DNA of 40,437 nt from Ophiocordyceps camponoti-saundersi (nom. inval.) (Eukaryota; Ascomycota; Sordariomycetes; Hypocreales; Ophiocordycipitaceae): assembly GCA_003339415.1 (NCBI GenBank), contig PDHQ01000302.1, positions 1 to 40,437 of the forward strand. The letters run 5' to 3'. A program made the position numbers and the translations under genes. This document shows, in pieces, positions 25,519 to 39,377 of the stretch. The notes beneath the pieces are model-generated. The model was not told where the DNA came from, made no database searches, and saw nothing but the letters and a program-made list of their open reading frames with translations. Numbering within the stretch: the first letter of the stretch is position 1; each line of letters begins with the position of its first letter.

Positions 25519-25588
25519 GATGGCGAAGGAGGCCCCTTTGGACGCGAGGGGGGGGGGGGGGGGGGGGGGGGCGGGGGGGGGGGGGGGG

Positions 25589-25646
<58 letters not shown>

Positions 25647-29227: not shown

Positions 29228-29300
<73 letters not shown>
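29228..29300. repeat. 73-nt poly-C tract upstream of LUC7
   Basis: An uninterrupted C run ending exactly at the N gap, so its real length is not resolved. Confidence 0.95.
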
Positions 29301-29310
29301 NNNNNNNNNN
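29301..29310. other. Assembly gap (10 N)
   Basis: Ten N directly follow the 73-C run, which suggests the assembly or read broke inside the homopolymer. Confidence 0.98.
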
Positions 29311-29365
29311 GGTGTGGAGGGAAATTTCTCCCGTCCCGTCACACACCAAACACAACCTCTCACCA

Positions 29366-29391
29366 CCCCCCCCCCCCCCCCCCCCCCCCCC
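29366..29391. repeat. 26-nt poly-C tract, 5' of LUC7
   Basis: It lies 63 bases before the LUC7 start on the sense strand. Confidence 0.95.
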
Positions 29392-31645: not shown

Positions 31646-33375
31646 GGCGGGCGGTTTCTCTTGCTAGACGGATGTGAATTATAGGTATGTATGTATATCA
31701 GGTTAAACGCTGGGGAGGGAATTTGTCGACACTTTGCTCGGGCGTAGTAGATCCGTGGTGGCAGGTTGGTTAGCATTACTAAACGCACAGCACGCATTGC
31801 TATTCATACACTTATCGTGACTCGCGGGTCGCGGCACCATGATGCCCCACGCATGTGGATCAATCCACCCCCATTTTCTTTAGTCAACTAAGGCCTCGCG
31901 GATAATCTGCCAGTCTAGGTCGACTCCCTACGACAACACGCTTCACTCATAAAGACCAGTCAACGTGAATAAAGACCAGTTCGCGTGATGTATCACTGTC
32001 GAGGATGTCAAAGTCACGGGCACAACCAAACGGGAGGGAAGTGACTTTTTCCCCTTCTGATGATCGTGAATGGAAGGCACTGTTGCGAACGCGAGTGAAA
32101 GACTTGACGGACATTCAAGAGTTACGACCAGATGATTATGCGCTCTCAACATATCCAAATCTCAGTAGTCGAGTAATGGGGCTAATCAAAGACTCCGAGA
32201 CCCAAAGTGGCTAAAGGTGGTGCACCTGAGAAGTGGTTCGAGTGTGATACGCTTTACACCTTCTTCCGCCGGGGAAAGGTGGCATATAATATCTACCTCT
32301 AACTCTCGCCTCATCTGCCGTTTGACAGTCCTGAATCGTGAAGAAGAAACGGAACGATCACGTCGCTTGGCATTCCGATGTCCTAGGCAAAGAAGCTAGC
32401 TGCAAAGCTTGACCAGTTACCAAGAAGTCAAGAACCAAGCCGGGATAAGTGGAAAACGAGGATGCCTCTCGATGATGGTAATTATTCGTATGCAGCGATA
32501 ACGTCTCTAGATCAAGGATCGAACAATAAAGACTAAATTCTCGTAATTGAGATACCAGTCGCATACATCACCGATGTCTTAGGCTTGCATCATAGTCCTA
32601 TCCAAGTCAGGCAAAGGATACGATGTAGGGCGGGCGTGCGGGCTCCTGAAAGTGAACGCAGAGCGATGTTCAAACGCCCGTCGGTCAATGCAGTGGTAAC
32701 AGGCTTACTTTTAACCGAGTTTTTTGCCCTGATTGCATACCTAGGACTCTGGGTCGAGAGCTTGACATGAGGAAATTAAGTCTGCTAAACGAAAACCGTA
32801 TTCCTTGACGAATGGCTCAGTATCATAAACAGAAAAGCCAGTCCACGCTTCGTATCGTTCAATTACCCCCGTTCCTGATTGCTACGATGCCTGTAACGCC
32901 ATTGGATCATTGCAACTTTATTTCTGGAAGCCGTTCAATAAGAGTAAATGGAAAACTTGCACATGGTATGCCGAGCCGTCTTGCAGGAAGGCAATTACAG
33001 GCATTTAAGCCCAAGATTGAGTCTCAGCAGAACAAAGGTTTCTCTTTAAGGCTGTACCATACTGTTCTGCTGGCTATAGGTTCTCCCTCGCGGTCGCACT
33101 CTGCCCGGAACTCTGATACTTTCCGGTCGTGAGCCTCTCACAGTACGTGCATAGAAATATCATCCTTTCCATAATTGTAAAATCTTCAGCTTTGCGATTG
33201 CCTATAGGCGACTGTTGATTCTTGTGCTGAACGTCTTCTGACTGCGAGTGAAAGTTAATAAAAGCTGCAATTGCTCTACTCACATAAAGTAGGAGTCCGG
33301 ACACCATCAAGGGAACGACGCGGTCAACCATTGATCCCTCTACTCCGTATTGCGTTCCGCGATTCAGTCGGCAAG
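31646..33375. other. 1.7-kb stretch without a supported gene
   Basis: GC content is lower than in the neighbouring genes but CpA is not depleted. Only ORFs of about 60-105 codons without domains occur. A decayed gene or small secreted-protein gene cannot be excluded. Confidence 0.45.
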
Positions 33376-33996
33376 ATGAAGCTCGCTATCGGGATAATCT
33401 CCTACCTGGCCGGAGCAGCTGTAGCGGCGCCAGCAATAAAGGAAAAACCTGGCGATAAGCGCGTGGTGTTTAACCACAAAACCGGCGAGTTGGAGACGCA
33501 GAGTGTACCGCCACCGAAAACCACCATGACTGAAATCGCGGTGCATTCACAAGTGATGTCGAAGAGAGCCTCTTCATTAAATGTCACGCACAAGCAATGT
33601 TCACATGTATGTACGCATTTATCACCTCGTAGGTACGCGGCTACCGTCAAGGCATTTGTTCAGTTACCCAGGTCCGCCACTCCAGACGACGTTGGCGTGG
33701 GCGAAGACACCAGTCTGAAGGCAAGGAAGCCGTTTCGTCAGACATACAAGAGTCCGAGCCGACCAAACAGTGTTTACACAGACTGCTGCTACGCGAACAT
33801 ATTACCGATCCGATTCAGGGATGAAGCAGACGGTGCGGCCGCGTATGGATCATTACCCTACAGTTCAATTAGCAGCCGCTCCATTCCCAATGTCGATGCG
33901 AACGAAGATGCTGATCCTTTCATCTCGATAATAACATTGCAAAATACATATCGTAGCAGATTTCAGAGGATAGAGAAAAGCACTTTCTTACTATAG
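33376..33996 (+). CDS. Small secreted protein, effector-like candidate
   Basis: The start at MKLAIGIISYLAGAAVAAP gives 206 aa with a clear signal peptide; the 35 residues upstream in the frame are ignored. Dibasic Lys-Arg sites at residues 28-29 and 63-64 suggest Kex2 processing. Four cysteines occur, in KQCSHVCTH and DCCYAN. No domain is recognised. Isolated position and composition are typical of lineage-specific secreted proteins. An unseen intron is possible near 33607-33632. Confidence 0.5.
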   Translation: MKLAIGIISYLAGAAVAAPAIKEKPGDKRVVFNHKTGELETQSVPPPKTTMTEIAVHSQVMSKRASSLNVTHKQCSHVCTHLSPRRYAATVKAFVQLPRSATPDDVGVGEDTSLKARKPFRQTYKSPSRPNSVYTDCCYANILPIRFRDEADGAAAYGSLPYSSISSRSIPNVDANEDADPFISIITLQNTYRSRFQRIEKSTFLL

Positions 33997-35733: not shown

Positions 35734-38700
35734 TCACTCGTTATACTCGATGATAAATCGCGGTGACTCGGCAACGTCCCAGTCATCCGTCTTGTTCGCA
35801 TCACCAAAGATCCGCAGAGCCCGGAGGACAATCCTGTACGCCCCCTTGGGCGGGTACGTCCCCGAATCGAGTTTGCCATCCCAGATAAGGTCAGTCAAAT
35901 CGCTCGCTATCCAGGCTCCCGGAGATCCATGTAATGAACCGGTGATATTAATTTCATAGCTGCGGATAGGACTTCCACCAGACTCGGAAGATACGAGACT
36001 GGCCCGAAGCAGCGGTATGCCGAGCGAAGCGTTTACAACCAATTCGAACGGAGACTCCTCAGGTAACGGGGGCAATCTTAGACTGAGGCCATCGTAGACC
36101 ACTTCATCCCGATAATTAAGCATGATGCTATCCTTGGAGGCAAGAACTTGGTGATCTCGCAAAAATCCGGCTACGCCTTGATAAGGGATAGAGAGAGATG
36201 AGCCATCAGAGCCGTTGACAGCAATCCAGCCGGACCATATAGGGAGACGGCTAGTATCGAGACCTTCAGGGGGAGATGCCGATACATGAATGGTAGCTGA
36301 ATCACCCGGTTCCAACGCCAGTGTGGTCTCATCGAGCTCGATGGGAGCTGAGATATTGACCGTTTCGATAGCTCCGTGGTACTTGGAACGCGAGCCGTCG
36401 GCCGTGAAGGCGTAGACGGTAATAGCAGGAACATTCGAGAGCCGGTAGCTGACTTTCCTTAAGCCTTCATTCTTCAGAGTCAAGTTGAGCGTGGGATAGA
36501 TGCCATGCTCATCGGCCTGCTTGAAGTTCAGAGCAGCCGGCTTGACGAATGTTGTGGCATGCGCAGCGTCAAAAGCGCGGATCAAACCTCCTCCCTGTTG
36601 AGAGACAGGGGCAAGGTAAGGTTGAAAGCTCACGGTATCATGGTAGAGCTGCGGATGCGAGTGCGACACCAAGAGGTTCTCGATAGAGGACGCATCGAAG
36701 ATGCGTCCGTCTCTGGCATATTTTTCGCGGATGAGAGCAACGATACCGGCAAGGAGAGGCGCAGAGGAAGATCCTGACCTGTACAAACTACCTGTGTGTC
36801 TGGCTGTCGTTGATACGACCCCATTTCCGATAACACATAGAGAAGGCTTGAGAGCAAGATCCCAGGTCGGGCCCCAGGAGCTGAAGTAGGCGACGGCACC
36901 GGCCATGTCTTCTGGATACTCATAGTAAAGCTGAGGAGCCTCGCTGTTCGGATAAGGTGCGGTGATCTGGACTTTGCGGCCGGCTCTAAGAGCCTCGAAT
37001 ATCGTCATGGCAGTTTCTTGCTCAACCATGCCGATGGCTTCGACACTCATAGGCCAAGTTTCGATGTAGAATGAAGTCGGAATTTCCGAATACAGGAGGA
37101 TGTATCTGGCGCCTTGGTCGGCAAGGGCTTTGACATGAAAAGACGAGCCAGAGCCAGTGGTATTGTGGCCATCGCAAGCCCCCAGGCGAGCCATGACAAT
37201 TTTGTTGGTCAGATCCGGCATCTTATCCGGCCATTCGCCACAGGGCTCATCGCCATTAAGACCAGGGGTAAAGACGTCCATGGGTGTGTTGGTGAAGTTG
37301 TGCGGCGGAGAAGCCGGGAAGAGACGAAAGAAAACCTTCCCATCCCCGTCAACGCTATAGTGAGCGCGAGTCACAAGTTCCGGCAGGGCTTCGTTGTTCA
37401 TTATGCCGACCGAGATGACCCCTTCGTCCGAGGCCGGATCGATGTTGGAGAAGAATCCTTCGGAGCCGAAATTACCAGCTGCTTGGACGAAGACTACCCC
37501 GGCGGCGACAGCCTCTTGCGCGGCTTTCGAAATCACGCTCTGGGACCAACCACCCTCGATGCCGGCAGTCGAGACGATGACGTTTGCGCCATCGTCGACG
37601 GCTCTGCGAATGGCCTCGACCATAACTTGGCTAGGAAGCTCGCTGTCGCAGGCGACGCGGTAGACACCTAGTTCGGCACCAGGGGCAACGCCTATGAAAC
37701 CGAGTTCGTTGTCCTGAGCGGCGATGAGGCCCGCAGCAAAGGTGCTATGGCCATTGGGATTGCAGTCCTGGGGTGTCGGCCGGTTTCTCACAAGGTCGGC
37801 CCCGAACGAGACGAGGCAGCCGGGTCCGAAACAACCGCCGAGGGCAGGGTGTAGAAAGTCAACCTAGAAAACACATGTATATTACACCCCGGTTCATCAT
37901 CGTCTTAGCTTCTGTCACTCTTTGGTCCGTATAAAATTCCCAGACAGACAAAACACAAGCACTCGTCTTTGTTACACTTTTCTTTCCCACATCTATTCAA
38001 TCAACTCCAGTAATTCCCTCCCTTTACCCACGTCCTCGGAAAGAAGAGTTTCATGTACGTACACCCGAGCCAATGATGGCGATCTTTGAGCCTTTGCCCG
38101 TGAGGCCCTCGTGATGAAGCTTGTCAATCTGCATCATGGAGAGAGGCCGCTTCACCTCGGCCGACTTCTCAAGCGACTCGTCGCGGCGTATCAGTGAGGA
38201 TCCGTCGTCGTCGTCGTCGTCGTTGCCAAACTCGTCGTCGACAAGAGCAGGTGGTCTGTTGCCTCCCCTTTTCTCAAGCTTGTCATCAACGAGACTCATC
38301 GCAGGCGGCCGGACGCCTCCCCTTCTCATGATGGCACGAGGTTCAGAAAGCTCGTCATCGACAAGAGCAGGGGGTCGATTACCTCCCCTCTTCACGAGGC
38401 CGTCGTAAATAAGGGTGTGTGCTGGCGGTCGGCCACCTCTCTTCACGAGCTCATCATCGACCAGGGCAGGTGGTCGGCCACCTCCTCTTTTCACGAGCTC
38501 GTCATCGACAAGACCATACGCAGGTGGTCTGTTGCCTCCCCTCTTCACAAGCTCGCCATCAACAAGGGTATAAGCAGGTGGTCGTACGCCTCCTCTCTTC
38601 ACGAGCTCATCATCGACCAGGGCAGGCGGTCGGCCACCTCCTCTTTTCACGAGCTTGTCATCGACAAGACCGTACGCAGGTGGTCTGTTGCCTCCCCTCT

Positions 38701-39377
38701 TCACGAGCTCGCCATCAACAAGACCGTATGCAGGTGGTCTGTTGCCTCCCCTTTTCACGAGCTCGTCATCAACAAGGGCGGGAGGACGGACACCTCCCCT
38801 CTTCACGAGCTCGTCATCAACAAGAGGGTGTGCTGGCGGTCGGATACCCCCTCTCTTGACGAGCTCGTCATCGACAAGAGTCTTCGCTGGCGGACGTATG
38901 CCTCCCCTTTTCACGAGCTCGTCATCGACAAGGCTGTTGGCGGGGGGTCTTACGCCTCCCCTTCTCATGATAGCCAAACGTTGAGCAAACTCATTGTCGA
39001 ACAAGGTAGGGGGTCGGATGATGCCCCGTCTCAATATCGTCATGTCGGTGTCATCTTGTGCACCTTCCTCGAGGACCACAGGCCCAACAGTGGGCTGCCG
39101 TTTCTCAAGCAAGGCCGCTTCGGTTGGGGAATCGCTGTTGCTGATACTCCCCAAGGGATTTCTCCCGGCTGACGGCGCTCGTCTCGCCTCACCATGATCC
39201 CTGACATTCTGAAAAAGGAAAGAACGAATCTTAGCTGTATGTCCATTCCAAGCTTGTTTGTCCTCAGGTTACACTTACAGTCTCGGGCTGGGATAAGAGC
39301 TTCCTGTTGATGGAGGTAGCCTCAGAAAGGGAGGAAAAGGCGACAGCAAGCGCCGTCACAACTTGTAGACTTCTCAT
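35734..39377 (-). CDS. Secreted Kex2-repeat precursor fused to a degenerate S8 subtilase-like protein
   Basis: Exons 39377-39279, 39208-38063 and 37863-35734 (introns 70 and 199 nt, both phase 0) give 1124 aa. Exon 1 is a signal peptide (MRSLQVVTALAVAFSSLSEA). Residues 95-375 hold 15 tandem GGxRPPA units with dibasic ends, where subtilases usually have an I9 inhibitor propeptide. Exon 2 ends LTGKGSKIAIIGSG and exon 3 continues VDFLHPALGG, a normal Vpr/Pr1C-type continuation. His454 (NPNGHSTFAAG) and oxyanion Asn546 (AAGN) are present. The catalytic Asp position is Gly (IIGSG for IIDSG), and the Ser loop is SGSSSAPLLAG (Ser781), one residue short of SGTSxATPxxAG. A PA insert (about residues 590-720) and Fn3-like C-terminal domain follow. 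It is likely secreted; proteolytic activity is doubtful. Confidence 0.85.
37864..38062 (-). other. 199-nt intron between repeat domain and subtilase domain
   Basis: It starts GTACGT and ends TTTCTAG, and is longer than any other intron in the window. If retained, the frame reads V-R-T-stop. Confidence 0.75.
38183..39025 (-). repeat. 15 tandem Lys-Arg-delimited peptide units
   Basis: Units are 54 bp (18 aa, e.g. GGNRPPAYGLVDDELVKR) or 48 bp (16 aa, e.g. GGGRPPALVDDELVKR). Edge forms are 22-28 aa and end in Arg-Arg. The G-G-x-R-P-P-A start and L-V-D-(D/G)-E-L-V-K-R end are conserved, while the residue after GG (V, I, N, G) and the pair after A (NS, KT, HP, YG, YT, HT, MS or none) vary. Kex2 and Kex1-type trimming would release 14-16-residue peptides. 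Confidence 0.95.

What the first reader, a model, noticed from the sequence alone, without database searches (positions are those of the whole stretch)
35734..39377. Kex2-type multi-peptide precursor fused to a subtilase-like protein
A signal peptide is followed by 15 Lys-Arg or Arg-Arg-delimited GGxRPPA units, and the same spliced reading frame continues into an S8 subtilase with PA and Fn3-like regions. Repeats with KR ends are known from fungal mating pheromone precursors and dikaritin-type RiPP precursors (ustiloxin, phomopsin, asperipin), which are stand-alone proteins. Here the array takes the place of the usual subtilase propeptide. The protein could release many 14-16-residue peptides while delivering a subtilase fold. 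I know of no described example of this architecture.
Basis: partly seen in the sequence, partly recalled or inferred. Interest (0 to 1): 0.92.

Follow-up and report, generated by a model that had tools for sequence, protein, structure and literature searches.

The report
Peptide array on a dead protease
In three ant-infecting Ophiocordyceps fungi, one predicted secreted protein joins 12 to 20 repeats of a short peptide, nearly all bounded by paired basic residues that the Kex2 enzyme likely cuts, to a protease-shaped domain that lacks two of its three catalytic residues, so a single gene would likely deliver many small peptides plus an inactive protease-like protein.

Summary
The window is a contig of Ophiocordyceps camponoti-saundersi, an ant-infecting fungus. 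Three predicted exons (39377-39279, 39208-38063, 37863-35734, minus strand) give 1,124 residues: a signal-peptide-like start, 15 KR/RR-bounded units that all hold RPP, then a subtilase (S8) plus Fn3-like domain. The same fusion occurs in O. camponoti-leonardi (20 units) and O. polyrhachis-furcata (12), and in no other candidate scored in two array searches. Units differ synonymously (pS 0.53) but little in protein (pN 0.08), so the array looks translated and constrained. The junction intron has the position and phase of an intron in a triad-intact subtilase gene of the same genome, which supports one gene.

In a 43-row tree they fall in a set of 14 rows, all without the His. No I9 propeptide is found. 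Most likely Kex2 cuts the array into linear 14-16-residue peptides secreted beside the released pseudosubtilase. Cleavage, secretion and target are untested. The closest printed precedent found is a mushroom GH128 protein with one Kex2-bounded peptide. New variant of a known kind.

The parts
39279..39377 (-). exon 1, 33 codons; residues 1-20 signal-peptide-like
   Evidence: hydropathy rank 2 of 1,109 windows and a like start in relatives
39209..39278 (-). intron 1 (70 nt, GTAAGT..CAG), phase 0
38063..39208 (-). exon 2, 382 codons, no stop in frame
38183..39025 (-). array of 15 KR/RR-bounded units, core GGxRPPA then (xx)LVDDELV, residues 95-375
37864..38062 (-). intron 2 (199 nt, GTACGT..TAG), phase 0, between IGSG and VDF
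   Evidence: same position and phase as the intron at IDTG/IDY of the triad-intact paralog in L005
35734..37863 (-). exon 3, 709 codons plus stop, most of the subtilase fold and Fn3-like part
36658..38098 (-). Peptidase_S8 domain, residues 404-817 (interrupted by intron 2)
38069..38071 (-). catalytic Asp position, Gly here (residue 413)
37738..37740 (-). catalytic His position, Phe here (residue 457)
36181..36504 (-). fn3_5 domain, residues 869-976

Best explanation
One predicted gene of Ophiocordyceps camponoti-saundersi encodes 15 GGxRPPA-type units bounded by KR/RR, followed in the same frame by a subtilase domain that lacks the catalytic Asp and His; Kex2 would likely cut the array in the Golgi into linear peptides of mostly 14-16 residues, which are predicted to be secreted beside the released, likely inactive, subtilase-shaped protein. 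Shown from sequence: the array, its frame, its presence in three species' deposited proteins, the replaced residues, a confident subtilase fold in a model, and no I9 match. Inferred: splicing, entry into the secretory pathway, Kex2 cleavage, Kex1 trimming of the basic residues, and release of two kinds of product. The I9 propeptide is thought to chaperone folding and inhibit the enzyme (PMC5371821 passage); a dead subtilase no longer needs an inhibitor, which would have freed this slot for a peptide array. Most likely both products work outside the cell, against or within the ant host. In 39 of 47 units the only basic residue before the dibasic site is the Arg of RPP, and trypsin-like proteases cut Arg-Pro poorly (recalled), which would suit life in haemolymph. 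The target is not known.
For: Same architecture in deposited proteins of three species, with 15, 20 and 12 units (15 by the model here). RPP occurs in 47 of 47 units, and 46 of 47 are followed by KR/RR. Between 13 full units, pS 0.53 and pN 0.076; without the variable third residue pN is 0.033. At all 46 dibasic sites directly before a Gly P4 is Leu or Ile: 15 of 15, 20 of 20 and 11 of 11. Dibasic [KR]R sites 19 in 395 residues of the N part, 1 in 729 of the C part. Asp to Gly and His to Phe in all three fusions; 14 of 14 rows of their set in a 43-row tree lack the His. In the model, 377 of 957 residues have pLDDT 90 or more and 273 have 70-90, while residues 1-223, which hold the array, are under 50. 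Intron 2 shared with the triad-intact paralog. A gene with S8 and P domains, as in kexin, is in the same genome. No I9 match on this contig while nine lie elsewhere.
Against: No transcript, peptide or cleavage datum was seen. The Kex2 matrix in PMC2515848 scores Leu (0.09) and Ile (0.28) low at P4, and its abstract reports recognition of negatively charged residues at P1', P2' and P4', where these units have Gly, Gly and mostly Arg. So efficient cutting is not assured. Unit number and the third residue differ between species, which a sharp receptor ligand might not allow. Kex2 sites could serve only to remove a prosegment. Loss of activity rests on alignment; the Ser is aligned in place and its motif is one residue shorter.
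Confidence: 0.62

Rival explanations
1. The array is only a prosegment or spacer: Kex2 sites serve to strip it and free the pseudosubtilase, the peptides have no function of their own, and the repeats grew by tandem duplication.
For: The array lies where a propeptide would be cut off; copy number varies 15, 20, 12; Metarhizium relatives with a propeptide also carry dibasic sites before the fold; one of 30 pairwise comparisons hints at propeptide remains.
Against: A spacer need not keep GGxRPPA: pN 0.033 against pS 0.52 outside the variable residue, RPP in 47 of 47 units.
Confidence: 0.2
2. A surface-active or structural repeat peptide like Ustilago maydis Rep1, acting on hyphal surfaces and not on the host.
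For: Rep1 and Ece1 also have Kex2-bounded repeats and a longer terminal fragment (PMC2515848 passage).
Against: The units are short and 12 of 15 here are net negative, not the longer hydrophobic repeats I recall for Rep1; the terminal fragment here is a whole folded domain.
Confidence: 0.1
3. A dikaritin-type precursor whose units are cyclised by UstYa-type enzymes.
For: UstYa-family matches exist in the genome (11); 5 of 15 units here hold Tyr.
Against: None of the 11 matches is on this contig; 0 of 20 and 0 of 12 units in the relatives hold Tyr, no Cys in any unit. The contig ends 1,060 bases upstream of the start codon, so the far side is unseen.
Confidence: 0.05
4. Two separate genes, an array protein and a subtilase, joined by a wrong gene model.
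For: If intron 2 is retained, the array frame stops at the fourth codon of the intron; the deposited model for this species differs from mine within the array.
Against: No start with a signal peptide for exon 3: its frame has a stop at the end of the intron and its first Met is residue 81 of the exon. Three species' deposited proteins cross the junction, and a triad-intact paralog has the intron at the same place and phase.
Confidence: 0.03

Closest known systems
Kex2-processed repeat proteins (KEPs; PMC6339444, PMC7329392)
   Same: signal-peptide-like start, at least three similar units between dibasic sites, unit size mostly 14-16 residues
   Different: carries a 700-residue folded domain after the array. 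By the results wording of PMC7329392, proteins with separated sequences over 100 residues were left out (its methods wording speaks of repeated sequences); PMC6339444 set the C-terminal fragment aside at first (passages and sections read)
Coprinopsis cinerea protein 365456, GH128 with a Kex2-bounded peptide (PMC9769878, passages)
   Same: signal peptide, Kex2-bounded short peptide, C-terminal enzyme-type domain; its peptide was detected by mass spectrometry
   Different: one peptide and no repeats; a glycoside hydrolase; Basidiomycota; the authors do not class it as a KEP
Rep1 of Ustilago maydis and Ece1 of Candida albicans (PMC2515848, passage)
   Same: Kex2-bounded repeats with a longer terminal fragment
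   Different: the terminal fragment is not described in that passage as a folded enzyme-type domain; repeats of other sequence
Pr1C/Vpr-type S8A subtilases with Fn3-like domain
   Same: S8 and fn3_5 domains, 29-49% identity to the other 117 listed proteins, shared intron; best solved match Bacillus Vpr
   Different: no I9 propeptide found, catalytic Asp and His replaced

Membership tests
KEP (Kex2-processed repeat protein) | at least three similar units of 8 or more residues between dibasic sites | tested here: met
   15, 20 and 12 units in three species
KEP (Kex2-processed repeat protein) | signal peptide | tested here: inconclusive
   hydropathy and conservation only, no dedicated predictor at hand
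KEP (Kex2-processed repeat protein) | units fill at least 15% of the protein (PMC6339444) | tested here: met
   15 x 14 of 1,124 residues is 18.7% here; 12 x 14 of the deposited 1,183 residues of O. polyrhachis-furcata is 14.2%, just under (lengths)
KEP (Kex2-processed repeat protein) | no separated sequence over 100 residues (results wording of PMC7329392) | tested here: not met
   about 730 residues follow the array; the methods section of that paper words the rule differently
KEP (Kex2-processed repeat protein) | peptides released by Kex2 | not testable with these tools
   needs peptidomics or in vitro cutting
Active S8 subtilase | subtilase fold | tested here: met
Active S8 subtilase | Asp-His-Ser triad | tested here: not met
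   Gly and Phe at the Asp and His columns; Ser aligned in place
Active S8 subtilase | I9 propeptide | tested here: not met
   no I9 hit in the protein at E 0.001 and none on the contig
Dikaritin precursor | UstYa-family gene close by | tested here: inconclusive
   none of 11 genome matches is on this contig, but it ends 1,060 bases upstream of the gene
Dikaritin precursor | Tyr in the core unit | tested here: not met
   5 of 15, 0 of 20 and 0 of 12 units

The most novel reading that the evidence does not exclude
A dead virulence-type protease was rebuilt into a two-product weapon: its propeptide slot became a hormone-style array that releases a dozen or more RPP peptides into the ant, while the pseudosubtilase itself occupies host protease inhibitors and so shields them. 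This would be the first known peptide-array/pseudoprotease gene, confined to one group of zombie-ant fungi.
Probability: 0.25. Interest if true: 0.88.

Novelty: new variant of a known kind. Interest (0 to 1): 0.68.

Why it matters
Which molecules Ophiocordyceps uses on its ants is an open question. This gives a candidate limited, as far as searched, to three species, with exact predicted peptides that can be looked for in infected ants. It also suggests a route by which an enzyme that has lost catalysis can be turned into a peptide precursor, and it names a blind spot: one KEP survey says it dropped proteins with long separated sequences, another set the C-terminal part aside at first, and a fungal subtilase survey removed genes that align badly around the triad as pseudogenes (PMC7329392, PMC6339444, PMC5371821; passages and sections read). 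Other such fusions may be hidden.

Tried and rejected

Stand-alone version of the array: a search with residues 1-431 (candidates 237-754 residues) gave no protein at E up to 1 among 7,991 scored; with the full length and region 1-395 (618-1,967 residues) only the three fusions among 7,991 scored. Both lists of candidates were capped. A script showed that the method scores the three fusions strongly. Proteins under 237 residues were not covered. Some deposited relatives lack their N-terminus (P0004, P0009, P0010), so an unannotated array there is not excluded. I did not establish which Ophiocordyceps genomes the protein collection holds.

Other arrays in this genome: with a 73-residue array query the best match outside this contig has E 0.097 (C279), so no clear second array of this sequence.

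P4 argument: I recalled that Kex2 likes aliphatic P4, but the matrix in PMC2515848 does not score Leu or Ile high, so the uniform P4 is told as a regularity and not as proof of cutting.

Motif scan of the 30 subtilase loci of the own genome by loose patterns gave many chance matches; I used from it only the lines for L005, L009, L016 and L018.

Literature: ten searches; 5, 13, 60 and 71 aimed at the fusion, the rest at KEPs, Ophiocordyceps or inactive subtilases. None listed a Kex2-repeat/subtilase fusion. Papers in which I saw passages found by term search: PMC7329392, PMC6339444, PMC9769878, PMC5371821, PMC4625970, PMC5624889, PMC7341126, PMC4859500, PMC2515848, PMC11057048. Whole named sections read: PMC6339444 (6, 10, 24, and its outline with abstract), PMC7341126, PMC2515848. 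Subscription papers and supplements were not seen.

Full report
What the window is. The best match to the C-terminal part is the deposited protein CP533_3356 of Ophiocordyceps camponoti-saundersi, 100% identical, on a contig of 40,437 bases, the window's own length. The window is the whole of contig C225 of a 45.7 Mb genome held in 733 contigs. The species is in Ophiocordycipitaceae, Hypocreales, and is treated as part of the O. unilateralis complex, a group of ant pathogens known for changing ant behaviour (abstracts in the listing; passages of PMC11057048).

The gene. On the minus strand three exons (39377-39279, 39208-38063, 37863-35734) join into 1,124 codons plus a stop with GT..AG introns of 70 and 199 bases. 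Residues 4-18 are the second most hydrophobic of 1,109 fifteen-residue windows, as a signal peptide would be. The deposited model for this species is different: it starts at residue 89 of the model here, without the signal-like start, and skips 79 residues of the array. The deposited proteins of O. camponoti-leonardi (partial, 1,189 residues) and O. polyrhachis-furcata (1,183, with extra residues before the signal-like start) agree with the model here in order: signal-like start, array, subtilase. Gene prediction for O. polyrhachis-furcata used RNA-Seq transcripts among other evidence (PMC4625970, passage); I did not see reads for this gene.

The array. Cutting after KR/RR gives 15 units here, 20 in O. 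camponoti-leonardi and 12 in O. polyrhachis-furcata. All 47 hold RPP; 46 of 47 are followed by KR or RR (the last unit of O. polyrhachis-furcata is not). All 46 dibasic sites directly before a unit Gly have Leu or Ile at P4. The third residue is V in all 32 units of the two relatives but N, V, I or G here; a unit with LFD near the start and long acidic units at the end recur in all three, as in arrays whose interior turns over. Among 13 full units pS is 0.53 and pN 0.076, and pN is 0.033 without the third residue; the mean share of minor bases is 0.284 at third codon positions against 0.083 and 0.053 at first and second. Copies of an array exchange sequence, so this is not a standard dN/dS, but it points to old copies held to one protein sequence. 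Fourteen distinct peptides are predicted here, 12 of 15 units 14-16 residues long, 12 of 15 net negative, none with Cys. Identity between species is 72-82% over the N part and 81-87% over the subtilase part.

One gene, not two. The intron at IGSG/VDF is phase 0. The triad-intact paralog in L005 has its intron at IDTG/IDY, phase 0, the same place; the paralog in L018 (P0023) has no intron there. Exon 3 has no usable start: its frame has a stop at the end of the intron, and its first Met is residue 81 of the exon. If the intron is retained, the array frame stops at the fourth codon of the intron.

Where it is found. A search with the subtilase part listed 120 of 168 proteins; of these 120 only P0001-P0003 hold three or more similar dibasic-bounded fragments. 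A search with the array gave the three fusions only. The own genome shows no clear second array. It has a gene with S8 and P domains (kexin-type) and nine I9 matches, none on this contig. Eleven UstYa-family matches lie elsewhere, none on this contig.

Surroundings. To the left, ten long frames were scanned: eight match known families (S18-like, ERCC6L2-type helicase, P450, ATG7, two pieces of Gpi16, LUC7, DUF6601) and two match nothing; I saw no sign of a peptide-modifying cluster. To the right the contig ends 1,060 bases from the start codon.

How it likely works. Inference: after entry into the secretory pathway, Kex2 cuts at the KR/RR sites and Kex1 trims the basic residues, as described for KEPs (PMC9769878, passages). 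Linear peptides and the pseudosubtilase leave together. Against easy cutting: the matrix of PMC2515848 rates Leu and Ile low at P4, and it reports recognition of acidic residues after the cut, while here Gly-Gly follows. Caution from the same field: kep knockouts in C. cinerea gave no phenotype (PMC9769878 abstract passage). The peptides' target is unknown. Context only: in O. camponoti-floridani six S8A genes were up during manipulation, some without I9 domain (PMC7341126, section 26); whether any is related is not known.

Novelty. Arrays of Kex2-bounded repeats are known, and a single Kex2-bounded peptide before a GH128 domain is known with its peptide detected (PMC9769878). An array of repeats on a pseudosubtilase was in none of my search listings. 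I rate it a new variant of a known kind.

Noticed in passing
window 33262-33993: An open frame with a short secreted-looking start (MKLAIGIISYLAGAAVAAPA) and no Pfam match lies near the fusion gene on the plus strand; a possible small secreted protein.
   Followed up: partly
L018 and L009 (own genome): Two further subtilase-type genes of the same genome lack the catalytic His (Ser and Ala in its place), so this genome holds at least three likely pseudosubtilases of this type beside a triad-intact one in L005.
   Followed up: partly
P0004-P0010, P0050, P0116, P0120: Deposited relatives from Metarhizium, Beauveria and other fungi lack the catalytic His; some are named 'subtilisin-like protease' or PR1C, which suggests an active enzyme.
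   Followed up: partly
window 25548-25644 and 29228-29391: Long single-base runs (97 G, 73 C, 26 C); translations across the second show unresolved bases (XXXX), so a small assembly gap may lie there.
   Followed up: no
deposited protein CP533_3356 (P0001): The deposited gene model starts upstream of the array at residue 89 of the model here and skips 79 residues of the array, so it lacks the signal-like start and several units.
   Followed up: yes
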